Shown here piece after piece: positions 9,735-61,592 of a stretch of 64,000 nt of DNA. The DNA lies in NCBI GenBank assembly GCA_002794785.1, contig NBBA01000007.1:1674001-1738000 (forward strand), read 5' to 3'. Under the pieces are notes generated by a model, which did not search any database, was not told where the DNA came from, and saw nothing but the letters and a program-made list of their open reading frames with translations. The stretch comes from Coniferiporia sulphurascens (Eukaryota > Basidiomycota > Agaricomycetes > Hymenochaetales > Hymenochaetaceae). Made by a program: the position numbers and the translations under genes. The first letter of the stretch is position 1, and the number at the start of each line of letters is the position of its first letter.

Positions 9735-10105
9735 TTACTTCGACGGGGTGCATGTCTAACAGTGAAATTAAGTCAGCTAGCATATAACTACTTTCGATAA
9801 CCGGAACGTACGCCAATAGGAGCTTCGCCGCCCTTGTTGTGTCTGTCAAGGGTCACACCAACTATGCCCTGAAGAAGGTAGATGTCCATCGGAACGCAAG
9901 TTTCGTCGTCGGCACAGTTTACCTCGGTGTACCCGACCGGAGCGAGGGCGTGAGTTAATAGCGTAATAGCATCCCAATTCACGTGGCCACTGGCAGGATC
10001 TCGCACAATACAAAACTCGGTGAATTCGCTGTCGATTTGCGGAGCAGCGATAGTGATTTTGGCCATGACGAGCGCAAGGATGGATACGAAGGCTACGTTG
10101 AACAT
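9735..10105 (-). CDS. Four-cysteine small secreted protein, paralogue A
   Basis: Two exons (10105-9812, 9755-9735) separated by a 56-nt intron give 104 residues. The signal peptide begins MFNVAFVSILALVMAK and ends around AAPQ. The four mature cysteines lie in TEFC, VNC-ADDET-C (C-x5-C) and the terminal PIG|TC-TPSK, where the bar marks the intron. The Gly codon GGC directly precedes the GTACGT donor. This is the only member in the A-C subgroup on the minus strand, inside an inverted duplicon. A TATA box lies 77 bp upstream. Without splicing the frame would end after a short GVRSGYRK tail. Function unknown; secretion is inferred from the signal peptide. Confidence 0.87.
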
Positions 10106-10181
10106 GGTTTAAGAGCGAGTTATAGGCAGCTGAAGACTGGACGTTTATAAAGTCTGAGTGGAACGGTCGTTGTTGTCGGCC

Positions 10182-10189
10182 TTTTTATA
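10182..10189 (-). promoter_or_regulatory. TATA box of paralogue A
   Basis: TATAAAAA read on the minus strand, 77 bp upstream of the ATG at 10105. The same box sits at the equivalent place in B and C. Confidence 0.7.
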
Positions 10190-10775
10190 CTCGCTCGACT
10201 TGTGTTTATTCGTCTTTGCACCGACCCCGTGTCTATTAGAGATAACCCCCTCTAGTATCCAAAAAGAAAGGCAGCCGAAAAGAAATCTGCTAGCGTCTGC
10301 CAGTATGCGCTATGAGCCATTTAGGATCCATTCGGCTGAGCGGAGTGGAGAAAAGAAAGGTAACTCCCGATGTCCGTGCATCGAGTCGGATAGCAGGAGG
10401 CCGCGGACAATTAAACGTCGGGGTGGAACGTTATTCCGACTTAATCATAGAACGGAGGATTCATACAAAGAAAATTGAGACATATATAAGGAGAAATTTG
10501 ACAAGACCGTACAGAAGGTGCGATGGGTTGACAACCTGGAAGTTTCCGGATTTTTCACGCGCATGCGGCATGACTCCCACAAGTTACAGTTGTCCAGGTC
10601 ATTAATTTTTGTCTGCGAGCGCAATTATTTAAGAGCCTGCCGGCGGTACCGAAATTAAGGCCGGCATCCCCTATAGCATTAAACCGGAGATCGGCTGCTT
10701 GCAAAATTAGACCTATCTAGCAGCTTCTCGCGCGCATTAGCGCCCTGTAGCGTACTTCGTTACTCGGCTGTGCGT

Positions 10776-11325
10776 CAAGATTCCCGATACCCTCAGGTAG
10801 AGGGTTCTGTAGTGAAATAATTCAGGGATCCGTTCTGGCTTATATATTTCTCGGACATTTGCCTACTTTAGGTAAAATTTGTGCTGCCGATGTGCCGCTT
10901 CAGCTCTTTTAGTTCCATTGGATTATTTTCCTCCCTTTTCTGGTAAGTATTCTTATAAAAAATCGCCTTTATTGTTTATGACATGTCTTAATTACGTGAC
11001 CCATTTACCCTCTCTCCTGGTTTGACTGTACACTTTTACATCACAAGGAAAAACCTTGGAAACTACAGCAAAGAGATTCCTTGGAGGTACCCGCTGTATC
11101 CTAATGTCCTTTTTCTCGATTGAATTCGAGTAATCTGGCTGTTGCATGATGGTGCCCTCAGTGGCCGCCGGTGTACATCCGCCGGCTAAATGCATTCAAT
11201 GATCGACGTCCAAATATGGAATGTGTTTGTCGCTGGCTGCATTGTTCCTTTCGCTGTCTTTGACGTTGTCCACTTCGTCTGCTCGTCAGCTACCACGCGT
11301 CTTGGTTTTCAACTTCCATGCAAAT
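10776..11325. other. Intergenic upstream of the Ser-rich gene
   Basis: No gene is recognised. This runs from the edge of the inverted duplicon to the ATG at 11326 and should contain the promoter of the Ser-rich protein gene. Confidence 0.4.
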
Positions 11326-13076
11326 ATGAGCGAGACCAGCGAATCCTCGCACATAAAGTCGGCCAGCAACTTCGGACTGGGCGGTCCTTCAACGTACTGG
11401 GCGTATGACGCTGCCGCAGAGGAAATGGACATGGACCACGTCGTTTGGCAGCCGTCGCAATCCAACTGTGCTGCGCTCAACCAGCTCATGAGCGATGCCA
11501 ACAGGCCACCTAATTGTAAGTCCTCAACCTAGGAAATTATCTTCGAGCGCAGTATTGCTGCGGTATCTTTCTTTCTCATCGCTAACGATTGGTCGCCGTC
11601 CGCATAGCGCCGCGCAAGACACGCGCCAAATCTTGGACCCCTTCGCCAGGGTCGACGTCCGATACGTCCTCTTCTTCGGTATCGCCATTGGCTGCAACGT
11701 CCTCGCGTGAAAGACGACCACCACGGCGCCGGCCATCTGCCACTTCCAGCGAATCGCAGACAATGCCTTCGTCCGCCGCTATTTCGGGCTTGAGCTCCAA
11801 TCCAAGTGCGCTCCTCGCGCTCATAAAAGACGTTTCTATGAAAGTAGACGAAGATGCTCTTCTGAAACGACGAGCAATTGAACGTGCACGGATGAAAGCG
11901 CAAGCAAAGAAGCGAGGCAAGGACAGAGATTTCGTACAGAAGGTAGTTCAGGGGAATAATGTAACCAATGGAAAGGAAAGAAGACGCGCAGAGGCTAGCG
12001 ACTTGCGCCAACCCCAGGGGAAGGAGGGTCCGGCTGTGGACACAGCGATGGATATGGACGTGGACATACAGCGCATGCCCCCTCCAACGATGATCCCGAC
12101 GCGCCGAACTCATATGAGCTGTTCAGTAATCGCAGATCTACCTCCAGCTGCTCCTCATTTACGCAAGCAAGGCCCAATGTCTGCAGAAGCGCTGAAGGTT
12201 AAAGACACAACAACCACGACGACATCCGCTTTATCTTTTCCAATGGCTTCGGCCAACGGTTTCGTCGATCCCAGCTCCCATCCGAGTGACGATTCAGAAA
12301 TTAGGAAAGCCCACTGGCCAAGTTCCCTTCCCAAAGGAAGCCTTGGTGAAGAAAGTATAAATAACAGATTCCCCGCATCGACTTGTTCGTCTGCTACGTC
12401 TACCACGGACTTTAGGTCCTCCGATGGGCGCGGGTGTACATCGCGTGATCGGCTCGGGCATGGTTCCATTCCGTCAGCTACCATAAGCACGCAACCCAGC
12501 ACTGTTTCTGTTAGGGCGGATTCGGCGCCATCAGCTTCGCAGATCCGTTTATCGGAGATGTCGAAGTCAAAGAACCCACCCGTTCTCGGTATGCGCCGTC
12601 CCGGGAATAGCCAGCCGTCCTCAAGCCAAGGTTTCAGTGGTGGTGTTTCAGCGAAGGTGAACCTGCCCGTAAGGCAGAAACAGTTCCGTCCACCGTTTGC
12701 GAAGACAAATTCACTTCCTCAACGTGTTCCTCCACTGTACCCCGACCTTCCGCCGCCAGCGCCTCGCTCGGCCACGTTACCTGCAACGTGCGGAGGGTCA
12801 GGGGAAACTGCCCCAGCTTTGGCTTCGATCCAGCGCTACGCAACTACAACGTCCGTATCCACCAACTCATCCCGGTCAGCAATGAGTGACCGGCAGGCAG
12901 GCTCGTCCTCAGAGGATTCCCACCATCCTCAATCCCAGCACCAAAACCTCAAGAATATCGATGGTAGTGGCTCGTCATCACCCCCGCCAGACGCAGACGA
13001 GAGCTTCACATCTGTGGACTTTGACATGGGCATCGACGAAGACGAAATTGAGAAGGCTTGCAGCGTGTACGATTGA
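11326..13076 (+). CDS. Ser/Pro-rich, largely disordered protein of unknown function
   Basis: Two exons (11326-11515 and 11608-13076) joined in phase 1 give exactly 552 residues. The start was chosen because the MSETSESSH exon joins cleanly across a GTAAGT...ATAG intron. The N-terminal 60 residues are ordered-looking (GGPSTYWAYDAAAEEMDMDH). Then come a basic Ser/Pro stretch (APRKTRAKSW-like), a Lys/Arg-rich probable helix (DEDALLKRRAIERARMKAQ), long Ser/Thr/Pro-rich regions, and an acidic C-terminus (VDFDMGIDEDEIEKA). There is no enzyme motif. A nuclear or regulatory role is possible from the basic helix and acidic tail, but this is only composition-based. Confidence 0.8.
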
Positions 13077-15393: not shown

Positions 15394-17127
15394 CACTTTC
15401 TCGCGTGGTTACGCTAAGTTAGTTGATGTAGGCTGTTGCAGAGAATTATTGTACGAGGAATTGTTTTATTTTATACGGTAGATAGTACTGGATACCCATT
15501 AAAGGAATAAATTATCATACATTCTAATAGATAATTCCACCATCAAAAAATTCCACCATCAAAACCCGGCGCGAAAGCTGGGGAGCCGACGTGCTACATA
15601 GTAGTTGCAATGCTGTAATGCTCTCCTCTTCTATAAAACGAACCTGGGACTCAAGTGAATGACTGTGAATCTGGAAGCTTAGTATGCCGAGGAGGGCCGA
15701 TCACGTGACATCAGAACAGGGCGAACTTTTGCGAAGTGTCACACTGACTCACAGGTTCTGCTCTGAACAGACATCTAGCACCTTCAGGCTTCGCCATGCT
15801 TGTAGCTGTGGTTTCTACGTGACACATGTACATCACGCTGGTATCGGCTGTTAAACTTGCTAAATCGATAGACTCAAACCGACTTGATTACGTCTTCTGG
15901 ACTTCGGGATCATCATCATCCACCACATGATTTCAAGCGAGCGAGTACATAGCCGCTTCAGCTACGCTCGAGTCAAGGACTTCACTCACTAGAGGTGATA
16001 CTGCTACTATGAGTCAACATCTCTTCGGCGTTCTTACTGCACGGGGCGGGATAGTACCGAACCACCACAGCGGGGAGAGTGCGAGATTATCCGGACCAAT
16101 GGGCTGAGGACGCGAGACACGTTGGCGGGGACTTCGTATGCGATTTCAACTCTCCACGCTGTGCTAATAGTCACCAATGACTTCTGCTGTTTGATTAATG
16201 ACCTACGCCGCCAATGGAACCCGAGCTTCTCGCAGCCGAACTGCGTACTGTACCGCCTTATAGGCTACGCCGCTACGGCGTTGTTAAACGATAACTCTTC
16301 AAGGTATATTGTACGTTTTCGATGATACTTAGGACTGGGTTGTTCTGTGCACTTATTTCGAACCAAACACGCAGCTCACAACTCGTCCGTTTCGCCAAAA
16401 TGAAGGGATTGTGTTTCCTAACTTCGATTGTATTATCCACAAAGGGTAAGCAAGTCTTCTGATCCATTTGTGCTGTCTCGTACGGACTAATTTCTGACAT
16501 TTTCGATAGCTTCTCACTTCGAAGTATCACTATAGACTATATTTTGACTAGAGCCGAATAGCGAAGTACGCTACAAGGTGCTAATGCGCGCGAGAAGCTG
16601 CTAGCTGGTCTAATTTTGCAAGCAGCCGAGGCACTCGTCTGCCTCCGGTTTTATGCTATAAGGGATGCCGACCTGAATTTCGGTACCGCCTGGAGGCTCT
16701 TAAATAATCGCGCTCACAGACAATGACCTCAGCCGGCCATAGCTTGCGGGAGACCATGCGCGTGAAAAATCTGAAAACTTCCAGAGTGTCAACTCATCGC
16801 ATCTTCTGTACGGTCTTGTCAAACTTCTCCTCGTGTCTCAATTTTCTTTGTATGAATCCTCCGTTCTATGATTAAGTCGGGATAACGTTCCACCCCGACG
16901 TTCAATTGTCCGCGGTCTTCTGCCGTATGACTTGATGCACAGACGTCGGGAATTATCCCTCTTTTGTCCACTCCGCTCAGCCGAATGGATCCTAAACGAC
17001 CCATAGCACATGCTGGCAAACGCTAGCAGACTTCTTTTCGGCTGCCTTCCTTTTCGGACACCAGAGAGAGTTGTCTCGAAACCGACACGGGGTCGGTGCA
17101 AAGATGAATAAACACGGGTCGAGCGAG

Positions 17128-17135
17128 TATAAAAG
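17128..17135 (+). promoter_or_regulatory. TATA box of paralogue B
   Basis: TATAAAAG, 84 bp upstream of the ATG at 17212, preceded by a GAGCGAG element shared with copy C and, inverted, with copy A. Confidence 0.75.
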
Positions 17136-17211
17136 GGCCGACAACAACGACAGTTTCACCCAGACTTCACAAACGTCCAGTATTCAGCTGCTTGTAACTC
17201 GCTCTCACACC

Positions 17212-17564
17212 ATGTTCAACGTAGCCTTCGTATCCATCCTTGCGCTCGTCGTAGCCAGAATCACTACAGCAGCTCCGCAAGGGAACCCGACCGACGAGTA
17301 TTGTATTACGGATCCATCTGAGGTCCCGGACACCCCGGCATTGACTGGCTTCCTCACTCTGCTCGGGTACAATTTGGTAAACTGTGCCGACGTCGAAACT
17401 TGCGTTCCGATCGACGCCGACGTTTTTTCCGCCATACCTGGTATTGGAGCTTATTTCAACGAAGTGGACGGCGTAGTTCCTCTTGGCGTACGTTCTGGTC
17501 ACCTGAGGCAATTATATGGTAGCTGATTTAATTTCACTATTAGACATGCACCTCGTTGGAGTAG
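17212..17564 (+). CDS. Four-cysteine small secreted protein, paralogue B
   Basis: Exons 17212-17487 and 17544-17564 with a 56-nt intron (GTACGT...TTAG) give 98 residues. After the signal peptide (MFNVAFVSILALVVAR...AAPQ), cysteines occur in DEYC, VNC-ADVET-C and, after splicing, PLG|TC-TSLE. The second half has a D-F-S-A-I-P-G-I-G patch shared with C and E. Gene C in the direct duplicon is the closest relative. If the intron is retained, the frame ends in a GVRSGHLRQLYGS tail without the fourth cysteine. Function unknown. Confidence 0.88.
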
Positions 17565-18782: not shown

Positions 18783-20820
18783 GCTCTTCCGAGGTGTGTT
18801 CGTGTTTAATTCCATCCAAATAGCCCACAACAGACGCGAAAACACTTCAATTCTGGTCCAGACCTCTCGAAGCTCCAGCAGGTCTTTGACTGCTACCCCC
18901 ATCATCACATTTTCGTGCGACCAGTATCTGTCTTCAGCTACACCCAACACGCCTACACTCTTTCATCCCCTCTCTCCTCCTCTCTCTTTCTTGCTCTCTC
19001 CTTGTTCGGGATCCCACAAGACGCTACTCGAGCGTGCGACGGACGTCAGGCTTGGCGGGGGAGTACAGGGAAGGTGCCTCTTCTCTGTGCTTCCTCGTCT
19101 GTGTCGCGGCGTGGAGGAATGGGAGGAGTTACGCAGACGAGTGCCTTTCCTTCATTCCATCTCTTGCGCACCTGCTTCTACTCCCATAGAACCTAGATCG
19201 CGAGACGCTAGGGCGTGCGACGGACGCAGCGGCGATGGCGAGGATTCTCAGGGAGACTGGCCACCTCCCTGTGTCTCTGCAGCTTGAGTCTGAGCGTGAG
19301 GGAAGGGACTGGGACATTCTGGCGAGCCTCATACACTTCGTCGCATTTACCCTCTCGCTTGATTTCTTTCCTAGATCCTATAAGAACGACGTTGGAGTGA
19401 GATGTGGCTCTGAGCGGGCGACATGTGCCGGTACTGGTGGAAGAGGCCGAGGAAGGTGCCTCTTCCCCAGTTTTCCCTATCTGTGCCGCGCCATACTGCG
19501 GCGCGACGATGAAGACAAGTCCAGATATTCTTATATCCATTTTTTTCTCCGTTTCGCTCCTTTCTCACACGCTGCGTTTCGTCTCAGGCTGTTTTTCTTG
19601 CAGGGCAGGTCAGACAGCCGCGAGACGCCAGTGGGCGTGCGACGGATGCAACGGCAATGGCGACGAGACCCGGAGAGGCTGGCTACCTCTTCGAGTCTCT
19701 GAAGCTTGAGTCTGAGCGTGAGGGATCGGGCTGAGACAGTTCTAGCGAGTCGTTTCTTTTCGTCACGCTAGTACGCTCACCTGGTCTTTTTCTCGCTCAG
19801 CACTCGGGTTAGCAAAAGAAAAGAACGGATTTGCGATCACGGAACGTCTACTAGCAGAGCGGCGAGCGTCCGAGTAAACGGGGAAGGATGGGGAAGGAGC
19901 CTCTTCTCTTGACTTCTCCGTTTGCTCGCGACGTGTCGTGGAGTTTGGCCTGTGTGGACCCCAGTGCCCTTTTCATTTTTTCTCCCGTTCTCCAGATTTT
20001 AGTTCGGACTGATACTTCATTAGTCAGGTATTTTCTCGCAAGACGCTTTGGGCGTGCGACGGGCGTGACGACGAGGGAAAGGGAAACGCAGGGGGCCGGC
20101 CGCCTCCTGGGTTCCCTGCAGCCCTGAGTCAATACGCGATGGAATGGTGTTGCTTATTACGATGAGTTCTCCTTTCAATTCTCACTTATACGCTCTCTCG
20201 CTCGCCCTCTTCTCTTTTTCAGATTCCTTTCATGGAGAAGTGGACCCATAGTCGGAGTACGCGTTGGACGGCGGGGGGGATACAAAGGCGATAGCACCGG
20301 GGGACCGAGGAGGCTGGCCACCTTCTCGGTTCTTCGGTGCTTGGCCCAGAGTGTGGAGAGGCGGACGCACCGGCGACGGCTGACGAGTCGTGCAGGCTGG
20401 CCACCACCACGGCTTCGACGCCTGACCCCCTGCATCCCCAGGACCTCTTCGGCAACATACGTGCACGTGTTTATGTCGGGACCGTCGTTAGTGAGGGGCG
20501 TGGTACGGGGAAGGGGGGACGTGGAACGTGGAACGTGGAAAGCAGCGGATGGGAAGCCGAGGGGGCAAATCTCCCCGTGAGTTCTTTAGTATTCGCCTAC
20601 TGAGGCAGGCGACTGACTTTTTCATTTTCCTTCTTCCTCTTTCTATGTCTTTGTCTTCGCCACTTGGCGTTTTCCGACGGCTGTGCGCGGACCCCCCGGA
20701 GTTGTGTACGCGGTTCGGGCCTGAGGACCCGTGAAGCTGGCCACCTCCTGAGTTCCGTAGTCCAACCCGGCAGACGAACGGAGGTGGGGTATGTGGATGC
20801 GGTGATGCGGTGATTTTTTT
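18783..20820 (+). repeat. GC-rich tandem array downstream of gene B
   Basis: A motif centred on GGGCGTGCGACGGACG recurs at about 19033, 19215, 19634 and 20051. The 19215-19634-20051 spacing is about 418 bp, each with a following GGCTGGCCACCTCC-type segment. The block is homologous to 41720-43740 downstream of gene F and, in its first part, to 27380-27650 downstream of D. Open frames exist, and one frame repeats an ACDGRDGDG-like peptide, but there is no start or continuous splice structure I can support. Confidence 0.7.
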
Positions 20821-22568: not shown

Positions 22569-22924
22569 ATGTTCAACGTAGCTTTCGTATCGATCCTTGC
22601 GCTCGTCATGGCCAAAATCACTACCGCTGCTCCACAAATTGGCACCGTGCCCACCGATTTGTGTATTACGGATTCATCTGAGGTCCCGGGTCCTCAGCTA
22701 TTGGCTGACGCCCTCACTCTGCTCGGGTACACTTTGGTAAACTGTGCCGACGTCGAAACTTGCGTTCCGATCGATGCCGACGTTTTTTCCACCATACCTG
22801 GTATTGGGGCTTTTTTCAACGAAGCGGACGGCGTGGTTCCTCTTGGCGTACGTTCTGGTCACCTGAGGCAATTATATGGTAGCTGATTTAATTTCACTAT
22901 TAGACATGCACCTTTTTGGAGTAG
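22569..22924 (+). CDS. Four-cysteine small secreted protein, paralogue C
   Basis: Exons 22569-22847 and 22904-22924, with a 56-nt intron, give 99 residues. The signal peptide begins MFNVAFVSILALVMAK, and mature protein is expected after AAPQ. Cysteines are in TDLC, VNC-ADVET-C and PLG|TC-TFLE. Substitutions relative to B concentrate in the region between the first and second cysteines (SSEVPGPQLLADAL against the B equivalent), whereas the C-x5-C region, the FSTIPGIGA patch and the intron are nearly unchanged. Function unknown. Confidence 0.88.
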
Positions 22925-26283: not shown

Positions 26284-26583
26284 ATGTTCAACAAGGCCAT
26301 TGTCTCTTTCATAGCGTTCGCCACCGCCCAGGTCGTCGTTGCAGCCCCGCAGCTTTCCGGGTTGCCTTCCGTCGTGTGCCTCACGGACACCTCAATCCCA
26401 GGCCTGTCCGAAATAATCACTGGCCTCGGAACAGCCGTCGTTACCTGTCCCGCTGGAGAAACATGCACTGCTTTACTCGGTGCCATACTCCCAGTTGGCG
26501 TGCGTATTGCCTACTATCTGTTCACGAGCCTCGTGGGTGTCACGCACGCTGACCAAATTATCCCACATTAGACATGCTCCTAA
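26284..26583 (+). CDS. Four-cysteine small secreted protein, paralogue D
   Basis: Exons 26284-26499 and 26572-26583, with a 72-nt intron, give 75 residues, the shortest member. The signal peptide is MFNKAIVSFIAFATAQVVVA, followed by APQ. Cysteines lie in VVC, VTC-PAGET-C and PVG|TCS, where the last exon codes only Thr-Cys-Ser. Compared with B and C it lacks most of the loop after the C-x5-C pair. The intron length is a multiple of three and has no internal stop, so a retained intron would be read through to the TAG of the splice acceptor. Function unknown; F is its closest relative. Confidence 0.86.
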
Positions 26584-29669: not shown

Positions 29670-30017
29670 ATGTTCAACAAAGCTTATATTATCTTCGTCG
29701 TGTTCGCCGCCCTCCAGACAGTCATTGCGTCGCCCCAGGCCTCTGGTATATCCGCTGTATGCGTTGTGGACGGCTCCGACATCTCTAGCATAATGGGTAT
29801 CCTCGATGAATCCGGTATTGCCACCACCACATGTTCTACTGGAGAGACATGCACAGCGCTGTCCTCCTCCGAATTCGATAGTATCCCTGGAATAGGAGGA
29901 ACTATTGGTAGCTTTGGTGGCGAAGTACCGATTGGTGTGCGTATTTTTAGTTGGCTCGTTGGCTTCGGTTACATCGCGTATGCTAACGGAATGCACTCAC
30001 ACTAGACATGCTCTTAA
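29670..30017 (+). CDS. Four-cysteine small secreted protein, paralogue E
   Basis: Exons 29670-29936 and 30006-30017, with a 69-nt intron (GTGCGT...CTAG), give 92 residues. The signal peptide MFNKAYIIFVVFAALQTVIA precedes SPQ. Cysteines are in SAVC, TTC-STGET-C and PIG|TCS. It retains the longer loop with SIPGIGGTIG, as in B and C, combined with the MFNK-type signal peptide of D and F, so it links the two subgroups. As in D, the intron is a multiple of three and open, ending at the acceptor TAG. Function unknown. Confidence 0.86.
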
Positions 30018-31699: not shown

Positions 31700-31971
31700 A
31701 TTAAATAAATATAATATTAAATAAATATAACAAACGATATAAATATAGTACGTGGTCATATGAACAACCACCTTACTAAGTGAATGATAACGCAATGATA
31801 ATGCCATATGATACCAAAGCTAGATAGTTATAGTAATACTAGCACACGGAACATGTATATAAGGGGAGCTGGTCTCACCCTAGAAATACATTGGTTTATG
31901 CTGATAACCCACCTTTGCCTCAACTCCACCACTGCACCTCATCATCTACTACAACATACGTAGATTTTAAG
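31700..31971 (+). repeat. TIR element, copy a (tandem with copy b)
   Basis: Related to 31968-32216 and, inverted, to 33359-33607. Shared core: GTCATATGAACAACCA, a TGTATATAAGG box, GAGCTGGTCTC and ACTGCACCTCAT, ending in GATTTTAAG. The left end is AT-rich and degenerate. Confidence 0.75.
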
Positions 31972-32216
31972 ATATAATGAAACAATATAAATAACAGATG
32001 GTCATATGAACAACCATCTTACTAAGTGAACGATAATGCAACAATGACGCCATACGATAGGAGCTATGATAGTTATAGTATACGTAGCTCACGGTAGATG
32101 TATATAAGGAGAGCTGGTCTCTACCATGAAATACATCGGTTTACACTGATAACTCACCTTCACCTCAACTTCACCACTGCACCTCATCGTCTACCACAAT
32201 GTGCATAGATTTTAAG
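31968..32216 (+). repeat. TIR element, copy b
   Basis: Second tandem copy, sharing its left edge with the GATTTTAAG end of copy a and itself ending in GATTTTAAG at 32216. It contains the TATATAAGGAGAGCTGG segment. It has no coding capacity. Confidence 0.8.
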
Positions 32217-32818
32217 AGTTCAACATACCCACTAAGGTCGAGTAGACTGACTCTTAACTTAAGTCACATAGTCAAAGAGTAGGACGTGGGATCAATACCA
32301 GTACACTTGTAAATGCTGAGATGGGTACGAGTACCAGCATGAGGCGAAGTGCACATACCCCGTGTCGTCTGAGATGAAGACAGCTCAGTGCGTTTGTGAG
32401 GAAACTTTGATCACCAGCGTGCAACATGCTGCCTACCATGAATCATTCGTCCATCCCTTCGCTCCAGTAGGCACTCATTTAAAGTCCTGCAATGATCCCG
32501 CTGTAGGCTGGGCCAGTACCATGCTGCAAAGTTTAGAACTGCCATGATGAACCAGAAGCGCAATGTGAAGTCGGCATAGAAACGGGTGGCTAGTGTGAGC
32601 TTGGGTGCTTATTGGCATTGTGCAGAATTATGCTTGGCTCTGAGGGGGTGCGGCAATACATTGAAGAAAGCGAGGTATGAACACGACTCGTACGAAACGA
32701 AGAGGAACGTGAACGCGCCAGGCATCAGGAGACGGAAATTTTTAAAATTTTAAAAAAAATGACAAGCCACTAACATGATTACCAAATAAAAGATATAACC
32801 CAAATTTTTAGTCAATTG
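32217..32818. other. Unassigned stretch between the TIR elements and the retrotransposon
   Basis: No gene or repeat partner was seen within the window. A 61-codon frame at 32362-32547 is unsupported. Confidence 0.3.
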
Positions 32819-40597: not shown

Positions 40598-40896
40598 ATG
40601 TTCAACAAGGCCATCGTCTCTTTCATAGCGCTTGCCGCTGCCCAGGTCGTCATTGCGGCCCCGCAGCTTTCCGGCTTGCCTTCCGTCGTGTGCCTCACGA
40701 GCACACTCCCAGTCCTGTCTTCAGTGATTAGCGAAGTTGAAAGCCTCGGGCTTAACGTCACCACCTGTCCCACTGGGGAAACATGCACTGCTATACTCAG
40801 CATACTCCCAATTGGCGTGAGTATTGCTTACGGTTCATGAGTCTCTTGGATGTCACACACGCTAACAAAAAACTTCCATATCAGACATGCTCCTAA
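40598..40896 (+). CDS. Four-cysteine small secreted protein, paralogue F
   Basis: Exons 40598-40816 and 40885-40896, with a 68-nt intron (GTGAGT...TCAG), give 76 residues. The signal peptide MFNKAIVSFIALAAAQVVIA precedes APQLSGLPSVVC, identical to D over this stretch apart from the signal core. Cysteines are in VVC, TTC-PTGET-C and PIG|TCS. The segment between cysteines 1 and 2 differs strongly from D (LPVLSSVISEVESLGLN) and includes an NVT glycosylation sequon. It is the only copy with a GTGAGT rather than GTRCGT donor. Function unknown. Confidence 0.87.
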
Positions 40897-43760
40897 ACGT
40901 ATGGCCGTCTGATTCGGAGGCAATCCTAAGATATAAGCCAAACAGTGAAGATGTTTGTTATTGGTTATTAAAGTCCCTGAATTGTTATCCATACTAACCA
41001 TGAGCACAGATAATTCTCCTATGTGTAGTTGATATGTCAGGATGTAGTATGACATTTCCCTCTGTCCTTACTCGGTTGTGTCCGCTCCGTTGTCTCTCCC
41101 TCCGCTTATCCGGTATTTGCTGCTTTGTAACATGTTCGGGTATAAGGCTGGCGGAGATAAATGTTGAAGTACGTTGGTGAGATTCTGTACGATAGACGAA
41201 GAAAGGACCGACCACAGGAAGCAGGAAAAATCATTTATCCTTCCTGCTGAACAGCATCAGTCGTCTACAATCTGGTTATTTCCCCCACCTAATTGAGTCC
41301 TTCTCGGACTCTCATAGTTCCTATCTCATCTCCGCTGTTCCCTTTTGACATCATATCCTAAGGAGTACAATGGAAGACGAAGAACTGGGAGCTCCAGTAC
41401 CAACATTAAAACTCCGCTTTTATAGACCGATCCGCAGATCCGTAGATCATCGCATCATAGTCTGCAACTAATAATCAACACGAGTCCTTTTCCCTTTAGC
41501 CACCAGTACTACTGCTATGGCCATTAATTTGGACTTTCAATCAACAAAAAAGCTTCGGTTTTAAGCGCTGCGACTCTGCGGTTGAGTAAGAAAAATGCGA
41601 CCACGCAGAGTCGATCCGGACCCATGTTTACTTCCGAAACCGCCACCAAAAAGCAGTCTGAACTACGATAACCGCCTTTTCCAGTCTTCATAGCAAGCAG
41701 TGACGATATATATGATCTCATATGCCCTCTTCGCTTTTCGAGGTGTGTTTCATTTACTTCCGTTTCCAAACGGCCCGCAACAGGCGCGAAAACACTTAGA
41801 TTCCTGTCCGGACCTCTCGAAGCTCCAGCAGCCTTTGCTACCCCCATCTTCGTGCAATCAGTATCTGTCCTCAGCTACGCCCACATCCTTCCCTCCTCCC
41901 CCCCTCTCTCTTTCTCTCTCCTCGTTCAGGATCTCGCGAGACGCCACTTAAGCGTGCGACGGACGTCAGGCCTGGCGGGGGAGGACAGGGAAGGTGCCTC
42001 TTCTCTGTGCTTCCTCGTCTGTGTCGCTGTGTGGAGGAACTGGGAGGTGTTACGCAGACGAGTGCCTTTATTTCATTACATCTCTTGCGCACTTGCTTCT
42101 ACTCCCACAGAACCCAGATCGCGAGACGCTAGGGCGTGTGACGGACGCGACGGCGATGGCGAGGAATCTCAAGGAGGCTGGCCACCTCCTTGAGTCTCTG
42201 CAGCTTGAGTCTGATCGTGAGGGAAGGGACTAAGACATTCTGGCGAGTTGCAACCACTGTCGAATTTACCCGCTCGCTTGATTTCTTTCCTAGATCCTAT
42301 TAGAACGACGTTGGAGTGAGATGTGGTTCCCGGGCAGGCGACATGTGCCGGTACTGGTGGGGGAGACCGGAGAAGGTGCCTCTTCCCTGGTTTTCCCTAT
42401 CGGTGCCCTATGCCATGTCGCGTCGCGCCGTGGAAGGGCGGGGCTTGGGGAGGGGCGATTCTGATCCAGACAAGTCCAAATATTCTCATATCCATCTTTT
42501 TCTCCGCTTCGCTCCTTTCTCACACGCTGCGTTTCGTCTCAGGTTGTTTTTCTTGCAGGGCAGGTCGGACAGCCGCGAGACGCCAATGGGCGTGTGACGG
42601 ACGCGACGGCGATGGCGAGGAATCTCAAGGAGGCTGGCCACCTCTTCGAGTCTCTGAAGCTTGAGTCTGAGCGTGAGGGATCGGGCTGAGACAGTTCTAG
42701 CGAGTCAGTTCCTTTCGTAACGCTAGTACGCTCACTTGGTCTTTTTTTCGATCAGCACTCGGGTTAGCAGAAGAAATTGGATTTGCGATCTCGGGACGTC
42801 TACCAGGAAAACGGCGAGTGCCCGAGTAAACGGGGAAGGACGGGGAAGGTGCCTCTTCTTCTGACTTCCCCGTTTGCTCGCGACGTGTCTCGATGTTGGA
42901 GTTTGGCCTGTGTCTTGAATCCCAGAGCCCTTTTCATTTTTTCTCCCGTCCTCCAGACTTTAGTGCGGACTGATACTTCATTAGTCAGGTATTTTCTCGC
43001 AAGACGCTTTGGGCGTGCGACGGACGTGACGACGGGGCAAGGGGAACGCAGGAGGCTGGCCACTTCCTGGGATTCCCTGCAGCCCTGAGTCAAAGCGTGG
43101 TGGAGTGGTGTTTCTTGTTACGATGAGTTCTCCTTTTCGTTCTCACCTATACGCTCTCTCGCTTGTCCTCTTCATTTTCAGATTCCTTTTATGGCGGAAT
43201 GGATTTACAGTCGGAGGACGCGTTGGGCGGGAGGCAGGACACAAAGGCAATAGCACCGGGGGACCGAGGAGGCTGGACTCCTTCTCGGTTCTTCGGTGCT
43301 GGACCTTGAGTCGCATCGGCGATGGCTGACGAGTTGTGGAGGCCGGCCACCACCACGACTTTGACGTTTGACCCTCCGCGTCCCCAGGACCTCCTTCAGC
43401 AACATACGTGCATGTGTTCCCATCGGGACCATCGTTGGTGAGGGGCGGGATACGGGGAAGGGGGAACGTGGTGGACGGGAAGCCGAGGGGGAGGGCAAGC
43501 CTCCCCGTGAGTTCTTTAGTATTCACCCACTGAGACAGGCGACTGACTCTTTCATTTTCCTTCTTCCCCTTTCTATGCCTTTGTATCTTCGCTACTCGGC
43601 GTTTTCCGACGGCCATGCTCGGACCCCCCGGAGTTGTGTGCGTGGTTCGGGCCTGGGGACCCGTGAGGCCGGTCACCTCCAGGGTCTAGTAGTCCAACCC
43701 GGCCGACAAACGGAGGTGGGGGTGAGGTGATGCGGAGATGCTGGGTCCGGGAGGGGAGAG
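40897..43760 (+). repeat. 3' part of the F duplicon and GC-rich tandem array
   Basis: 40900-41720 matches the D 3' flank (26590-27380) and the last 360 bp of the B flank. 41720-43740 matches the 18783-20820 array, with GGGCGTGYGACGGACG repeats at about 41955, 42133, 42588 and 43012. No coding region is supported. Confidence 0.75.
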
Positions 43761-48923: not shown

Positions 48924-49288
48924 ATGAAGTTCAACAAGGCCCTCTTCTCTTTTGTCGCACTCGCTGCAGCCCAGACTGCCGTCGCGTCCCCGACCCCGGA
49001 CCCGCAGCTCGGTATCTTACCTACCATTGTGTGCATCACCCCAGGCTCTCTCCTCTCTGGCGTGACTGGAATCCTCGGCGGACTGTCCATTCTCGACTGC
49101 TCCACTGGAGAGACATGTGAGCCACTGGCTGCCGATTTGCTGGACGATATCCCCATCGTCGGAAGCCTTCTCGCGGGCCTTGCTGGTCTCACTGACATAG
49201 TCCCCATCGGCGTGCGTATTCCTCCTTGAATAAAAGGGTATGAGACTCGCGCAAGCTAACAAACCGTTCGCAACAGATTTGCTCCTAA
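48924..49288 (+). CDS. Four-cysteine small secreted protein, paralogue G
   Basis: Exons 48924-49211 and 49277-49288, with a 65-nt intron (GTGCGT...ACAG), give 99 residues. The signal peptide is MKFNKALFSFVALAAAQTAVA, with one extra residue (MKF) relative to its paralogues, then SPTPDPQLG. Cysteines are in TIVC, LDC-STGET-C and PIG|ICS, the only copy with Ile before the fourth cysteine. The loop after the C-x5-C pair is long and hydrophobic (DDIPIVGSLLAGLAGL). Function unknown. Confidence 0.87.
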
Positions 49289-51551: not shown

Positions 51552-52835
51552 TCACTTTAGCTGCCGTAGACGCTTAACAACGTCCTCGTAAGCCTCGGGC
51601 GTCCATTCGTCCTCCACGAGGTGGAATGTGCCATTTTTTATACCTCGCTCGTCCCTTTCCGGGCCACTGCGGTATCCTGAAGTCACTTCGCGGCCCTCTA
51701 TGTATGCGCGCGGACGAGGTGCTGATACTACGCTGACGCGTCGCATCACCTTCGCTTGCATAGAGCTCAAGGGTTTGTCATCCTTAGCACCCGACACCGA
51801 TACCGTGGAACCCAAGGGCGCCGCCGGCCTTGGAGCGGGCGCTGGCAGGGTAACAGGTCCAGGTCCAGGTCCAGGGGAAATGCCAGCCGAGTTACCACGT
51901 GGCACCTTAGGACCGAAAACAAGTTCGCTTGGCACATACTCGCCCAGATGCCGCATGAGCTTATTCATACGACGCTTTCGCAGGCGGGCCTCCGTCTCCA
52001 CCTCCGCCTCCTCATCCTCATCGTCGCCGAATGCATCCGCGTCAAGCGCACCTGCCTGCTCGTCATGTGGCGAATACGTCAACCCATAAGACAATGCGGG
52101 GGGAGTGACCGGTGCGCCGAGGGAAGTCGGGGACATTGGCGACGTTGGCGAACGTGGGGGAAGGGAAGCCACAGATGGCGGTGTGCGCCCCGGTGTATTT
52201 GGGTGGAACTGTTCTGACTCGATACCAGGTGAGAACGTCGCACGGAGAGGTGACCCGGAAGAAAACCTGTTAGTTGCTGCTCCGGAAACAGGTGGCGGGA
52301 GGCGAAGTATGGGCTGATGTCTTCCGTAAATTCGGCTGGCGTCTACCCCCGGGAAAGTAGACAGAGGGGATAAGACATCTGCGACTGTTCTCTTACGAGA
52401 ATGGCCCAGGCTTGACGATGGAGCGGTATCTAGAATGAAGCGGCTTGTTGAGTTTAAATCGCTCTCCGTGTCGGACACCGTCGACGTGCGCGACAATGTC
52501 ATTTCGCCACCATGTGCAACAGATGGCGGAAACGGGAAATCGAACGAAGTATATGAAGCGGCGGGAGTCGGTGGGGCAGACCGCCTCTTAGCTGCCGCGT
52601 CCGTTAAGGACCTTGTCATAGATAGAGCAGGAGGGGCAGGAAACGGATCCGCGATGTAGGGCGTCGTCCCCAAAACTTTACCAAGCTTCCGCGAAGTCCT
52701 GATAAAGCGTGACCGTTGGGCAGCATCCAAGTGATTGCACGTCGGCGGGGGGGTGTGTTCCCTGGCCAGAGATGCCGACGAGAACGATGTGTTTACCACC
52801 GACAACGACGTTGAGCGATGAGCCATGAGGGCCAT
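51552..52835 (-). CDS. Pro/Ser-rich protein of unknown function with a basic LMRHLGE motif
   Basis: A single uninterrupted frame of 427 codons starts at ATG 52835. The first 60 residues end in a basic segment with RKLGKVLGTTPY (about residues 49-60). A long Ser/Pro/Thr-rich, probably disordered region follows. Around residues 265-310 an acidic run (DDEDEEAEVETEA) leads into RLRKRRMNKLMRHLGEYVPSELVFGP, the most conserved-looking part. A PGPGPGP run comes from a GGTCCA hexanucleotide repeat, and the C-terminus (DEWTPEAYEDVVKRLRQLK) looks helical. I do not recognise an enzyme domain; the two basic L-G motifs look like short interaction motifs, perhaps basidiomycete-specific. The codon use and length make it very likely real. 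Confidence 0.85.
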   Translation of the reverse strand: MALMAHRSTSLSVVNTSFSSASLAREHTPPPTCNHLDAAQRSRFIRTSRKLGKVLGTTPYIADPFPAPPALSMTRSLTDAAAKRRSAPPTPAASYTSFDFPFPPSVAHGGEMTLSRTSTVSDTESDLNSTSRFILDTAPSSSLGHSRKRTVADVLSPLSTFPGVDASRIYGRHQPILRLPPPVSGAATNRFSSGSPLRATFSPGIESEQFHPNTPGRTPPSVASLPPRSPTSPMSPTSLGAPVTPPALSYGLTYSPHDEQAGALDADAFGDDEDEEAEVETEARLRKRRMNKLMRHLGEYVPSELVFGPKVPRGNSAGISPGPGPGPVTLPAPAPRPAAPLGSTVSVSGAKDDKPLSSMQAKVMRRVSVVSAPRPRAYIEGREVTSGYRSGPERDERGIKNGTFHLVEDEWTPEAYEDVVKRLRQLK

Positions 52836-55800
52836 GCCAGTACGCAGGTGGATGATAGAATGCGCAGCAGACCAGGTGAAGAGCTAAGTTAGATAAGTAT
52901 AACAACACGCTTATGCGTGCCAACAGCTGACGTTCAGGAAATGTCGGGGGATGTACACAAGGTTGGTCGTCGTCAACGCGCAGCGCAGCGAGCAGGGGGA
53001 GGCAAGCGACGGGAGAGGGGCAGCGGGTGTAATATACATAAGAAATGGAGTCTTATTTACGTAGGCGAGTTGTCAGGGTTATACAAAAGCGTGCCGGTCC
53101 ACAGCATAGACTTCTTTTAGGTTTCTATTTTAACTCTAAACAGGGGTTACATTACCGTTTATAGCTCCATATCCGGTTGATCTCGCCTAAGCGACGGGAA
53201 GCAATGGACGCGGTATTCCGCCGGCAGCGCCCTGTTTTCGGTCCTTGTGTCCCGAATATCGCAAGATCTCCGTGCCCCCTTTTTTCATAATAGCCAGAGT
53301 TAAACAAATCGAACTTAATGAGTTTAAATAAGGGAGGGTGGCAGTCAAGAGCTTTTATCCGATGCTTTTCATTCTCCTTATTTTCTTAAAATTCCCCTGA
53401 GCAATCGCCTAGGCCCGCCACCTTCGGAACGTCTCAGCCAATGGTGGCCCACGTGATTGATCGGGTCGCTTGGCGGTCCGCCCGCGGGAAATGGGCTTAT
53501 GCAGGAACCAGCATCGGCTGCGGGCCGCCGTGCAACTGCACGAAGGCGTAAGGTACCGAAAACCGGAACTGCACGAAGAAGTAATTAATTGCACGGGTTC
53601 CGAAACGCAGGAGTGGCCGGCATAGTGTCCGACCGCGTATCTTTCAAACTTGACAAGTAAAACTTTGACCCTGGTCTCCTATGAGCCGCAACACAGCTTG
53701 ATCAAAACCAAGTCCGTACCTCACCTCTTTTCCATCCATTTCCGCCACCTTACCATTTTTGAAGAGCGTTACAGGTCACGCAGTTGAAGCACCTGTCCCG
53801 ATGTTCCTTATCGCCCGTGCCTACACTCCACTCGAGCTCCGTTACACGTTCACAAGTAATTCCGAGCCGGTCTAGCCCCTATGGTTATACGGCAGTGCTT
53901 TTGCACAGTCGCCACCCGGCCACGATCTCAGATGGTCATTCTACGGATTTTGCGTGGCCCAAGGCTAGGATAGGATTCCGAGGAAACGTGTGTATGGTCT
54001 AATGGGTAATTTGGGGTTTCGGCACAGCGACGATTGCGGGCAGACACTTAAATTTGGTCTTCGCCCCGTAAGCGGAAACCCAGGGTAGGCGGTTGCATCC
54101 ACAATCACATCAATACTCCGATGACGCGACGTCTCAGATACTCAATACATCTTTTTTTTTTTTTTTGCATCGCATTTGGCATTTTGGACATACGGGTATC
54201 ATCTCATCGCGATGACCCTGCCATATATCAACCAAACGAGCATCTATCCTACCACTTAAACGCATTCCTGACGGAGGCACGGATGGGGGAGTCCGACCTA
54301 GGCTCTGAAATGTAATGCGATCCGATGTCTCACTGGCAGTAGTCCTCGGGACTAACGCCACAACTTCAGGCCTGGTATGACCCCAATCGCAGGACTTGAG
54401 TCACACGCGCGTTCCATCCAATTACTTTTTAACTTGGATTGACCTCTTCGTCTCCATGCCTATCCACGCCATCTACATTCAATATTTAAAGCCGCAGCTC
54501 ACACAAATTTTCTGCACCGGCCCTTATTGCGCCTATCATAACCAGGAAGATGGGGTCGGCGGGAAATCATCACCTGCGGGCGCTGGTGTGCTATCTGTGA
54601 AGACATACAAATGGTATGTATTGCTCGTCTGTCGTTCTATGGGTCATGCACCCAAGCGTGGTTTCTCGAACTGCCTCGTATCGACGCTCGGGTCGCTGTT
54701 CACGACACGCCTACTCGTCTCCCACCAGTGTTGGCTCTTCGCTTCACTTCCTAGGTAACACCGCGACTCGTGTCCTCAACGCATCTACATACACTCCTCC
54801 AATTCCTCTCACGCCTCGCCTCAGAGATCCAATCATCCACTTTGGTAAATCGAGCGAGTTTACGTACGTAATTGATCTGACTAAGCGAAACGCGCAGATG
54901 GCTAATGCAGTGATCCGGCTCGGTGACTCGCAGTTGCGGAAACTAAAAAAAAATTCGATTACTCAAACCACTTCACCCTTGAACGTGATAGGGGTTTTTA
55001 GAGCAAGCACAAAAAGAAGTGGAATGGCGAGCGGAACAAAGGATGACGGGTGTTATACATTATACACCAGTGCATAATTGCGGCGTCCAGTTCCGGTTCG
55101 GATTGTGATGATCATGATCGAACTATATGCGGAGAGGAGAGTAGTTAGTTCTGCTGTGAATTTTAATAGATTTCGCGACGATATCGGCTTGTGCTTATGT
55201 GCATCTTTACCGTATGTACTTTTAATCAACTTTTCAAGTTGCATATCGTTCCTAGCGACCATCATGTATGTTGTATGTGTGTACACGTGGCTCGAGACAA
55301 TAACGAACCAGAACCAGACGCATGGCGCGGTGACGGGGTAATTCGGCCACTACATATGCGCCCACTCGTCGCTACAATGGAGAGATGACAGCAGCTTCTG
55401 ATGAACTGTAAATTATATATCTCTTGTGCTTCTTATCATTAAGTGAACGACGGAAGGGAACTACATGTAGTAAGCATGATGTTCGGTCCCGAAGTTCGGA
55501 GTGGTAACGAAAGTAACTATTCCCAACTCGTGCGGTTTGTTTTTGACCGAGCTTGTTCAGGACATGAATCTACAAATATAAACCTTTCCTGAGCCTACAA
55601 GTTTAGGAAGCACGATGGTTGTCTAGTCTTGAAAATTGAATATTTGAGCTCTTGGAGACGGACTAACGTGTTTCATTAGAACACGCTCAGAGTTAGTGAG
55701 TTAATAAGAACCTAACGGCAGACCATAAGCAAGGCGTGTTGGTTTTTTCAGCAATTCGCGTCGCTTGCGGATGCACTCCGTTCGCATATAGGGTAACCAG

Positions 55801-56505: not shown

Positions 56506-56873
56506 TCACAGAGTTGTGGCAGTGCACGACTAGTAAAGAAATCGTATTGTCAGTTCGTGCGTAGATATCCACAAAGACAGACACGCACACCAAGTGGCAG
56601 CGAGCTGGCTACAACTCCCGAAACAGTCGGGACCGCCGAGACAATACTTTGGACGTCGGCGAGACTAAGCGCAGTGCAAGTTTCACCAGAAGGGCACGTA
56701 GTGGGGGCGATTGCGGCGCCATCGAGTATGCTGCTCAGTCCCGCAACGCTGGAGACAGGCGAGCCAGTCGTGATACACACACTGGTGGGCAAGACGCTGC
56801 CGACTTGTGGAGACGCGACAACGACGTTCGCTACAAGGAGTGCAGAGAGGAATACGAAGATATTGTTGAGCAT
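56506..56873 (-). CDS. Four-cysteine small secreted protein, paralogue H
   Basis: Exons 56873-56589 and 56529-56506, with a 59-nt intron (GTGCGT...CTAG), give 102 residues. The start MLNNIFVFLSALLVANVVVA was chosen by alignment with the paralogues; an in-frame upstream ATG exists. SPQ follows the signal peptide. Cysteines are in TSVC, TTC-PSGET-C and PLG|SC-TATTL, with a longer tail after the fourth cysteine. The start of the family signature (MFNK) has diverged to MLNN. The neighbouring DNA shows no similarity to the B or D duplicons, so this is an older copy. Function unknown. Confidence 0.86.
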
Positions 56874-58896: not shown

Positions 58897-59250
58897 TTAC
58901 CCGGCTATGGCGGTGCAAGTCTAGTAGATATGTATTTGGTAAGCTTATACACGGCTTTTCGAACCTGCGAGGTGTGAAGTACGTACGCCTATTGTGTCTG
59001 GAAGAGCGAGAGTACCAACTGGGAGCTCGGCGATAAGGGTGGCGAGCTCATCGGCGGTCAGAGAAGTGCACGTCTCCGTTGCGTCGCATTCAAGGAGGCT
59101 CAACCCGGCAGTGCCTGAAACAGGGACAGCGCCGAGGACCGACCCTTCCGGGATGCAGAGACCAGCGGGCAAAGCGGGGAGCTGTGGGGCGGCAATGGCG
59201 ACCTTGGCGACAATGAGCGCGACAAGCGAAACAAGGACCTTGTTAAACAT
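58897..59250 (-). CDS. Four-cysteine small secreted protein, paralogue I
   Basis: Exons 59250-58987 and 58920-58897, with a 66-nt intron (GTACGT...CTAG), give 95 residues. The signal peptide MFNKVLVSLVALIVAKVAIA precedes APQLPALPAGLC. Cysteines are in GLC, LEC-DATET-C and TIG|TC-TAIAG. The usual proline before Ile-Gly is replaced (DTIG). The loop after the C-x5-C pair is long (LTADELATLIAELPVG). An in-frame ATG lies further upstream, but MFNK is preferred because all paralogues start there. Function unknown. Confidence 0.86.
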
Positions 59251-59324
59251 GGTGTACAAGGGAAAGTGCAGGAAGTGGCTGAAGTTCGCTATAGTGCTTG
59301 GAGATGTCGACCGCATTTATGTTT

Positions 59325-59332
59325 CTTTTATA
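59325..59332 (-). promoter_or_regulatory. TATA box of paralogue I
   Basis: TATAAAAG on the minus strand, 75 bp upstream of the ATG at 59250. An upstream in-frame ATG at 59316 lies so close to the box that it is unlikely to be the start. Confidence 0.7.
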
Positions 59333-61252
59333 GATGATTCATCTGGTTGTGCTTGTTCGTGTTTGTGTCCTGCTAGCAAACCAGAAAGCTGCGGCCATAC
59401 CCCCATTCTCGGACATGAAAGCTCATGGTGTAGCGAGTAATCAAAAATTTGGCTGGTAGGAAGGGTGAAAACGTCCTATATGGAGTATATCGAGTTAGCG
59501 CGCGGAGGAACACAAGAAGGACGGCCTACCAAGGAAAATCAAAGACTCAGGGAAGCTAGTCGATACAATTCACCCCGTATCTCCGCACGTCTGGAATTGA
59601 ATGCTCACAGGAAATAGTAATGCAGGAGCATATTCCGGTCATCCAGTGTAAGAGAATGGGTTATGTAGACAGGTGGTCGACTGCAGCAAAGTTCCATATT
59701 ACCAGAGTTACAGTCCAGAGAAGGCAAGCATTTACAACATGCTTTAACCTGTGTCAGAGCTTGAGTAAAATGCAGATCAGCTACAAACGTGGCACGGATT
59801 CACAGCTTTCTCAAAGGAGAAATTACCGGGGTGGATATAAGAACAGTGGCTCTTCCATCACAGGATGACAACGAAGTGCGCGTCAAAAACCCCTCTAGCT
59901 ACGGCCGAGCCCTACCGCAGGGTAGACACATTGCCGAGAAAGTATCAAGGCCGCCGGATGATCTTTGAAATTCGGAAGACTCGGCACTGAGTTGAAACAA
60001 TTTCAGCAGTTGTACTCAGTCCCGCATCGGGACTGAAAAAGTGATCACCTCTCGGACATAGAGGGGGGCATGACGTTTGATCAGAACCGAACCAAGAACG
60101 GATCCGCCTTCCATGAAAATGTAGATAGGAAGACATTCTGATTGGCTTGAGCGGAGATATGTTTGAAATTTGAAAGAAATATGCCTAAACGAATGAAGTG
60201 CACATTGCAGGCGTGCACTAAGACTTCCAACGGGTGAGAATCCGAGAAAGTAGACTGAATTATTAGTTGTTGTCATGAAGATGATCTCCGGGAGAAAGTC
60301 ATGCCGTTGTAAAGTACACAGTGGTTCTCGAAATGTGGCACGCCTTGTCTACCCTTCCACAAGTCGGCCACGGTTGACATCTCACCAGCAGGATCCAAAA
60401 ACCAGATCACCAAGTGCCTTGCAATTCCTCAGATTCCTGAGACGTGATGATAGGGGAAATGATTTCCTGGTAAGGTATACTGCTGCACAGTCGGGGTGTG
60501 GATGATTGTGAGCTTTGGAAAAGTCATGCCAGTTGGGCTGCGATGAGCACTATGCTTACTATGCTTACTAATACAGGTTTCCAAGCGATTAAATTATGTA
60601 ACACAATCACACGTAAGCGACCGTAGACAGATCTCCTCCAAGAGTCGTCACTCGTCGCGTACACGAAGCCAAATGAAGTTTTTAAGTTCTCCTATATTTA
60701 CAGGGGAATTTGGTACCTTTTCCGGAATCTGTAATTATTTTAAGGTCAGGCGCGGGCGAGGATTAGCCGCAGCTCGCAGGACATAGTACTAGCGCCGGCT
60801 TGAACTCGAAGTTTCCGAAAAGTGAGACTCAAAACAGACACGGTCATACTGTATAATAATACTTGAGCTTGCCGATATCAGTTTGCTGTCTGGGTTTAAG
60901 CTAGACACCAAAGGTCTTCACTCGGTTGTTTCTGTACTCGTTCGCTGTGCAGTGCGCACAACTCTACGACTCAGGATAAGGATTAAACACAAAGACATAT
61001 CACATTCGACAAAGTGTACCGGTACGAAAATATTAACAGGGGCGACTACGGGCGACGCTAGGAAATTGGGTAGACAAAAGAAAGGGTCCGTGCTCTGGGT
61101 AGCATACTCGCTAGGGAAGAATGGGCATGTCTGAAAGAAGTGATGGAATCAGAAACGTAGCTTCAAAGGAAGATGACCGCATGAACTGACATTCTAATCG
61201 ATTGAGTTGAATCACGACGAATAGATCGCAATTGGGCGGCGGGTCGTTGTGT
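59333..61252. other. Intergenic between I and J; no recognisable gene
   Basis: Short open frames only, for example 60275-60505 and 60883-61134, without supporting features. Confidence 0.35.
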
Positions 61253-61592
61253 TCACGCACACGTCTGAGGGAAAATGGTGAGTGAGTTCGTCCACAGGTA
61301 GTTTGGGGTTTAGAGCCGAGGCACGTACGCCAATCGGAAGAGGAACAGGGAGGCTGGCAGTGGCTGGCAGCGACAATGGCGTGCACACCTGTGGGGCGGT
61401 GCAGTTGAGAAGTCCGCCGGAAACGTCGAGGCCTGGAACAGCTCCAAGGATTCCACTCAAGTCGGGGAGGCCGGTAGTGGGAAGTGCGGAGGTCAAACAT
61501 ATGGGGACCGGCAAAGCGCCCAATTGTGGTGACGCGACAGTAACTTTGGCCGCAATGAGGGCGACGAAAAAGGTGAAGGTCTTGCTGAACAT
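61253..61592 (-). CDS. Four-cysteine small secreted protein, paralogue J
   Basis: Exons 61592-61329 and 61264-61253, with a 64-nt intron (GTACGT...CTCAG), give 91 residues. The signal peptide MFSKTFTFFVALIAAKVTVA precedes SPQLGALPVPIC. Cysteines are in PIC, LNC-TAPQV-C and PIG|TCA. The C-x5-C spacing is kept, but the usual GET before the third cysteine reads PQV, the most divergent copy at this motif. An ATG six codons upstream is in frame; MFSK was chosen by homology. Without splicing, a long alternative tail (about 37 residues) would replace TCA. Function unknown. Confidence 0.85.

What the first reader, a model, noticed from the sequence alone, without database searches (positions are those of the whole stretch)
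9735..61592. Ten-member clustered family of four-cysteine small secreted proteins
Seen: ten genes (A-J) share a signal peptide of the MFN(K/V) type, a processing region A(A/S)PQ, exactly four mature cysteines, an invariant C-x5-C spacing in all ten (C-x2-GETC in D-H, x-ETC in nine), and a final cysteine 1-5 residues from the C-terminus. Mature lengths are only about 55-85 residues. I know no named family with this pattern: hydrophobins have eight cysteines, and cerato-platanins are larger with different motifs. Inference: a lineage-specific family of secreted effector-like, antimicrobial or surface-active peptides, with two likely disulfides.
Basis: partly seen in the sequence, partly recalled or inferred. 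Interest (0 to 1): 0.9.

Follow-up and report, generated by a model that had tools for sequence, protein, structure and literature searches.

The report
Hydrophobic four-cysteine secreted protein cluster
A wood-rotting, tree-infecting fungus carries a cluster of small secreted, strongly water-repelling proteins with four cysteines that match no described family tested here, and in some copies the mature part has changed faster than the DNA around it.

Summary
Observation confirmed. All ten genes (A-J) are there: two exons, one 56-72-base intron, four mature cysteines, C-x5-C, last cysteine 1-5 residues from the end. The family is larger: 13 whole genes and one broken locus over 105 kb, found on contig C7 only. 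All 13 have a TATA box 82-120 bases before ATG; control ATGs 37 of 2100.

No Pfam, NCBIfam or PDB match above chance. The only homologue found is a Phellinidium protein that UniRef names 'Hydrophobin'; hydrophobin membership fails the sequence tests. Mature proteins are acidic and hydrophobic; 11 of 13 lack Lys/Arg. That argues against cationic antimicrobials and for interface-active hyphal proteins. A versus B: mature dN/dS about 4 in an ungapped block; B/C, D/F and E/K show no significant excess.

Unverified lead: this fungus's most frequent published EST encodes a 98-residue secreted orphan (PMC4117978); gene B encodes 98. Structure models failed.

The parts
9735..10105 (-). gene A, 104 aa; exon 1 9812-10105, intron 9756-9811, exon 2 9735-9755
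17212..17564 (+). gene B, 98 aa; exon 1 17212-17487, intron 17488-17543, exon 2 17544-17564
22569..22924 (+). gene C, 99 aa; exon 1 22569-22847, intron 22848-22903, exon 2 22904-22924
26284..26583 (+). gene D, 75 aa; exon 1 26284-26499, intron 26500-26571, exon 2 26572-26583
29670..30017 (+). gene E, 92 aa; exon 1 29670-29936, intron 29937-30005, exon 2 30006-30017
40598..40896 (+). gene F, 76 aa; exon 1 40598-40816, intron 40817-40884, exon 2 40885-40896
48924..49288 (+). gene G, 99 aa; exon 1 48924-49211, intron 49212-49276, exon 2 49277-49288
56506..56873 (-). gene H, 102 aa; exon 1 56589-56873, intron 56530-56588, exon 2 56506-56529
58897..59250 (-). gene I, 95 aa; exon 1 58987-59250, intron 58921-58986, exon 2 58897-58920
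61253..61592 (-). gene J, 91 aa; exon 1 61329-61592, intron 61265-61328, exon 2 61253-61264
17125..17140 (+). TATA box of gene B (TATAAAAGG, begins 84 bases before ATG), as example; the other 12 genes have one 82-120 bases before ATG

Best explanation
A locally duplicated family of small secreted proteins that work at interfaces of the hypha. Shown by sequence: 13 genes with the same exon plan and TATA boxes; mature chains of 53-82 residues with four conserved cysteines; acidic, almost free of Lys/Arg, mean hydropathy up to +1.15; partial segment duplication; one branch (A against B and C) whose mature part changes faster than noncoding DNA. Inferred: the chain is secreted and begins at the invariant Gln; two disulfides pin the chain; the loops Cys1-Cys2 and Cys3-Cys4 form a water-repelling face, so that the protein gathers at the hyphal wall, at air or on wood, as hydrophobins do but on another scaffold; the exposed loops are the part that meets host, rival or self and is remodelled in A/B/C.
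For: Composition: 11 of 13 mature proteins without Lys/Arg; hydropathy 0.27 to 1.15 in 12 of 13 (A -0.01), against 0.44-0.66 in five hydrophobins of the same genome that I spliced by eye. Four Cys in 12 of 13, five in M. One contig, duplicated segments. TATA in 13 of 13. A/B ungapped mature block dN 0.50, dS 0.13; signal peptide dN 0.08, dS 0.17. If Ps0058 is gene B (98 aa; sequence not checked), a member was the most frequent EST of mycelium exposed to Douglas-fir roots, ahead of two hydrophobins, and fell to 0.05 of the control in infected roots (PMC4117978): more a hyphal-coat pattern than a virulence pattern.
Against: No structure: both models under pLDDT 56 and without Cys4. No expression or secretion data tied to a member by sequence. 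A is not hydrophobic, and A/B/C, the branch with fast change, is the least hydrophobic on average. Codon adaptation of the 13 (0.52-0.62) is like that of eight P450 exons and one calcineurin exon (0.50-0.65), below seven hydrophobins (0.63-0.73), though the weights came from those hydrophobins. Hydropathy could also mean a buried core or membrane insertion.
Confidence: 0.4

Rival explanations
1. Apoplastic effectors: secreted into the host, where the cysteine-pinned chain binds a host protein or masks the fungus; host or receptor change drives the mature region to diversify.
For: Tree-infecting species (PMC4117978 abstract); small, secreted-type, clustered, orphan; A/B dN/dS 3.9 in the ungapped block (p 0.012), 4.6 between Cys3 and Cys4 (p 0.006).
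Against: B/C, D/F and E/K show no significant excess; the family also occurs in Phellinidium pouzarii, a wood-inhabiting fungus (PMC11904187, search listing); if Ps0058 is a member it falls in infection.
Confidence: 0.3
2. Antagonism or recognition between fungi or microbes: secreted peptides that act on rivals or mark self, not charge-based.
For: Many divergent copies; fast change in one branch.
Against: Acidic, Lys/Arg-free chains are unlike cationic antimicrobials; no toxin-like or resistance partner was recognised, but only part of the window's frames was scanned.
Confidence: 0.13
3. Remote, reduced hydrophobins: true homologues that lost half of the cysteines.
For: UniRef name of P0001; C-x5-C and G-x-C-S motifs look alike; similar composition.
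Against: hhalign probability 0.7%; no PF01185 match; introns elsewhere and hydrophobin hits on C1, C5, C6 only.
Confidence: 0.05
4. Small carbohydrate-binding domain of the CBM1 cysteine frame.
For: H matches 13 CBM1 positions, E 0.04.
Against: Below the cut-off (14.3 of 20.6 bits); 6 of 13 mature proteins have no Phe, Trp or Tyr.
Confidence: 0.02

Closest known systems
Class I hydrophobins (PF01185)
   Same: small, secreted type, acidic, hydrophobic, cysteine-rich; C-x5-C and G-x-C-S look-alikes; also clustered in this genome
   Different: eight Cys with two CC pairs (visible) against four and no CC; no profile similarity; other contigs and intron places
Phellinidium pouzarii EW145_g1322 (P0001)
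   Same: homologue, E 5.5e-13; same signal, APQ, the three Cys of exon 1; ends at our donor site
   Different: annotated model stops at G-V-R, as if the intron were missed, so a fourth Cys is not in the record
Pleurotus ostreatus ssp1-6 family
   Same: small secreted proteins of a basidiomycete, several copies, no known domain
   Different: about 18 kDa (PMC5674062, passages) against 75-104 aa precursors here; sequences not compared
CBM1 cellulose-binding domain (PF00734)
   Same: four-Cys frame with C-x5-C and a last Cys near the end (frame recalled); weak match of H
   Different: under the cut-off; no aromatic residues in 6 of 13
Ps0058 / JK317046 of Phellinus sulphurascens
   Same: 98-aa secreted orphan of probably the same species (PMC4117978, sections 7 and 15); gene B is 98 aa
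   Different: its sequence was not seen, so identity is open

Membership tests
Hydrophobin (PF01185) | match to the Pfam model | tested here: not met
   not among matches at E <= 1 for A-J (K, L, M not scanned); P0001 no match at E <= 10
Hydrophobin (PF01185) | eight Cys with two CC pairs | tested here: not met
   four Cys in 12 of 13, five in M, no CC
Hydrophobin (PF01185) | profile similarity to hydrophobins of the same genome | tested here: not met
   hhalign probability 0.7% against five hydrophobins
Hydrophobin (PF01185) | self-assembly at interfaces | not testable with these tools
   composition only
Cerato-platanin | match to its Pfam model | tested here: not met
   not among matches at E <= 1 for A-J
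CBM1 (PF00734) | aromatic binding face | tested here: not met
   6 of 13 mature proteins have no Phe, Trp or Tyr
CBM1 (PF00734) | score over the Pfam cut-off | tested here: not met
   H only, 14.3 of 20.6 bits
Pleurotus SSP family | size about 18 kDa | tested here: not met
   75-104 aa against about 18 kDa
Cationic antimicrobial peptides | net positive charge | tested here: not met
   pI 4.05-5.21 in 13 of 13
Fungal effectors (functional class) | diversifying selection on the mature part | tested here: inconclusive
   A/B and A/C yes; B/C, E/K, D/F no significant excess over synonymous change
Fungal effectors (functional class) | induced on, or acting in, the host | not testable with these tools
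   no expression data tied to a member

The most novel reading that the evidence does not exclude
A separate, undescribed scaffold of interface-active fungal proteins, built on four cysteines and almost no basic residues, that shares the hydrophobin niche in Hymenochaetaceae, includes the most frequent mycelial EST of the laminated root-rot fungus (Ps0058), and uses its loops as fast-changing recognition surfaces.
Probability: 0.15. Interest if true: 0.75.

Novelty: new variant of a known kind. Interest (0 to 1): 0.5.

Why it matters
Clusters of orphan small secreted proteins are common in fungi (general knowledge), but this one has a clear shared architecture, chains as hydrophobic as or more so than five hydrophobins of the same genome in most members, and a measured burst of mature-region change. 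If a member is Ps0058, an unexplained published observation (the top EST of an important conifer pathogen) would gain a family, a locus and a mechanism to test. Gene finders may miss such genes: the Phellinidium model seems to lack its second exon.

Tried and rejected
Rejected: hydrophobin membership, cerato-platanin, CBM1, the Pleurotus SSP size class, cationic peptide (see membership test). Weak Pfam matches in 4 of 10 proteins (E 0.04-0.093, all under the cut-offs) and four NCBIfam matches, each in 1 of 10 members (best E 0.046), are taken as chance. Synteny with Phellinidium through locus tags failed: its calcineurin g6680 lies on a 15.5-kb contig, its family member g1322 on an 88-kb contig. 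A weak hit of J on C11 (E 0.24) has no Cys and is taken as chance. Codon use did not single out B (7 of 8 hydrophobins asked for were read). The tree puts P0001 with D/F at 82/83, not starred; 1 of 11 inner branches was starred. Ten literature searches listed no paper that I recognised as treating this family; the library holds open-licence papers only, and I opened four.
Full report
What is there. Reading both strands and splicing by donor, acceptor and frame gives ten genes at the stated places. Each has one long exon ending in [PT]-[ILV]-G, one 56-72-base intron that begins GT[AG][AC]GT and falls between codons, and a short last exon that brings [TIS]-C and 1-5 more residues. All ten have four mature cysteines and C-x5-C; five have C-x2-GETC and nine x-ETC. 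Signal peptides were judged by eye.

Beyond the window. Stretches of contig C7 on both sides were fetched and scanned with a profile of the ten. Three more whole genes (K at C7:1,756,207, L at 1,781,991, M at 1,786,647) and one broken locus (N at 1,789,265) turned up: 13 whole genes and one broken over 105 kb. Seven family queries against the whole genome (exon 1 of F, H, L, M, J and G; the mature exon-1 piece of A) and one with P0001 hit contig C7 only, but for one hit on C11 at E 0.24 without cysteines. That search scores only the best candidates, so absence elsewhere is strong but not complete.

Are they genes? A TATA box, [CT]ATAAA[AG]1-2G, lies 82-120 bases before the ATG in 13 of 13; of all 2100 ATGs of the window 37 have one in the zone searched (60-130 bases), and that count includes the family's own ten. 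B and C are 71-98% alike in 100-base steps over about 2.6 kb, E and K 75-100% over about 1.8 kb; D and F also share long repeats. This is partial segment duplication. No transcript of any member was seen.

Which fungus. G000 has 39,347,566 bases in 31 contigs. A table in PMC10410303 (passages seen) gives Coniferiporia sulphurascens FP133613 with 39.4 Mb and the number 31, which I take for scaffolds. A calcineurin gene beside the cluster is nearest to Coniferiporia weirii (91% over my hand-joined query), then Phellinidium pouzarii (79%). So the window is very probably C. (Phellinus) sulphurascens, agent of laminated root rot; the match is by size, contig number and kinship, not by sequence identity.

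Relatives. Pfam for A-J gave only weak matches under the cut-offs; NCBIfam for ten members of A2 likewise; the PDB nothing at E <= 10. A profile search of 5.8 billion proteins scored 6,700 candidates and returned one protein, P0001 of Phellinidium pouzarii, E 5.5e-13. A second search, with L, M, K and P0001 itself in the profile, scored 7,993 candidates and found no other at E <= 10. P0001's model ends G-V-R, where our genes read through their donor site, so its last exon was probably missed. UniRef calls it 'Hydrophobin'. Tests: no Pfam match at E <= 10; hhalign probability 0.7% against five hydrophobins of this genome; PF01185 hits on C1, C5 and C6, none on C7; other intron places; four Cys without CC. 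It is not a hydrophobin by these tests, though size and composition are similar.

Composition. From the invariant Gln the mature chains have 53-82 residues; 11 of 13 have no Lys or Arg (A has four, L one); 6 of 13 have no Phe, Trp or Tyr; mean hydropathy is 0.27 to 1.15 in twelve and -0.01 in A; five hydrophobins of the genome, spliced by eye, score 0.44 to 0.66. This speaks for interface activity and against cationic antimicrobials.

Fast change. In A against B the signal peptide (dN 0.08, dS 0.17), the 300 bases on each side (85 and 86% alike) and the intron (80%) are more conserved than the mature part, where two 100-base steps fall to 71 and 59% (the second reaches into the intron). Flank steps vary too: some far upstream and downstream fall to 68-79% before homology ends. 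Because indels of 4 and 11 bases lie in the first loop, I repeated the count on a 37-codon block without gaps: dN 0.50, dS 0.13, ratio 3.9, one-sided Fisher p 0.012; between Cys3 and Cys4 ratio 4.6, p 0.006. A against C: 2.5 (p 0.051) and 2.9 (p 0.03). Nonsynonymous change in the A/B block exceeds noncoding change (p 5e-6) and that of the signal peptide (p 3e-4). dS in the block stays near flank divergence, which argues against exchange with a distant paralogue. Limits: A/B and A/C share most of their history; no correction for several tests; B/C (whole mature part 1.11; last block 0.31; first loop 2.07, p 0.28), D/F (0.83) and E/K (0.43) show no significant excess over synonymous change. In B/C mature nonsynonymous change does exceed noncoding change (14% against 6.6%, p 0.002), but synonymous change there is raised as well (13%), so that is no evidence of selection.

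A lead from print. PMC4117978 (abstract, sections 7, 8 and 15, and passages seen) reports that the most frequent EST of P. sulphurascens mycelium exposed to Douglas-fir roots, Ps0058 (JK317046, 21 ESTs), encodes a predicted 98-aa secreted protein without any match, ahead of two hydrophobins, and that it goes from 1.32 to 0.05 of the control over eight time points of root infection. Gene B encodes 98 residues; C and G 99. I could not see the EST, other 98-aa orphans may exist, and B's codon use is not that of a very highly expressed gene (0.53). My judgement, from no call: about one chance in four that Ps0058 is a member.

How it may work. Best supported is a secreted, disulfide-pinned, water-repelling small protein that gathers at the hyphal surface, a hydrophobin-like job on another scaffold, with loops exposed to recognition (0.4). 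Apoplastic effector is the main rival (0.3). Both low-confidence models have strand, helix, strand near Cys1 and Cys2, a hint only; disulfide pairing is unknown.

Verdict.

Noticed in passing
window 3130-6063 (-): Calcineurin A catalytic-subunit gene beside the cluster, closest to Coniferiporia weirii M0805_003328.
   Followed up: yes
window 34294-38204 (+): Non-LTR retrotransposon frames (endonuclease, reverse transcriptase, weak RNase H under its cut-off) between genes E and F.
   Followed up: partly
window 31753-32217 and 33358-33593: A 245-base unit in about two tandem copies and again inverted 1.1 kb away, 92% complementary: perhaps ends of a mobile element.
   Followed up: no
window 18644, 23979, 27253, 41594 (+): Four copies of a repeat about 1 to 1.5 kb downstream of the starts of B, C, D and F; frames tested near two of them (19190-19699, 41672-42190) have no Pfam match.
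   Followed up: partly
window 7842 (+) and C7:1665256 (-): Another possible secreted protein frame, MLSFNLL..., with a similar frame left of the window; no Pfam match.
   Followed up: no
C7:1789265-1789740 (+): Broken family locus N: its first-cysteine part and its second-third-cysteine part lie apart in different frames with a T-rich stretch between. Described only.
   Followed up: partly
window 11586-13073 (+) and 51555-52883 (-): Long open frames of 496 and 443 residues without a Pfam match at E <= 0.01.
   Followed up: no
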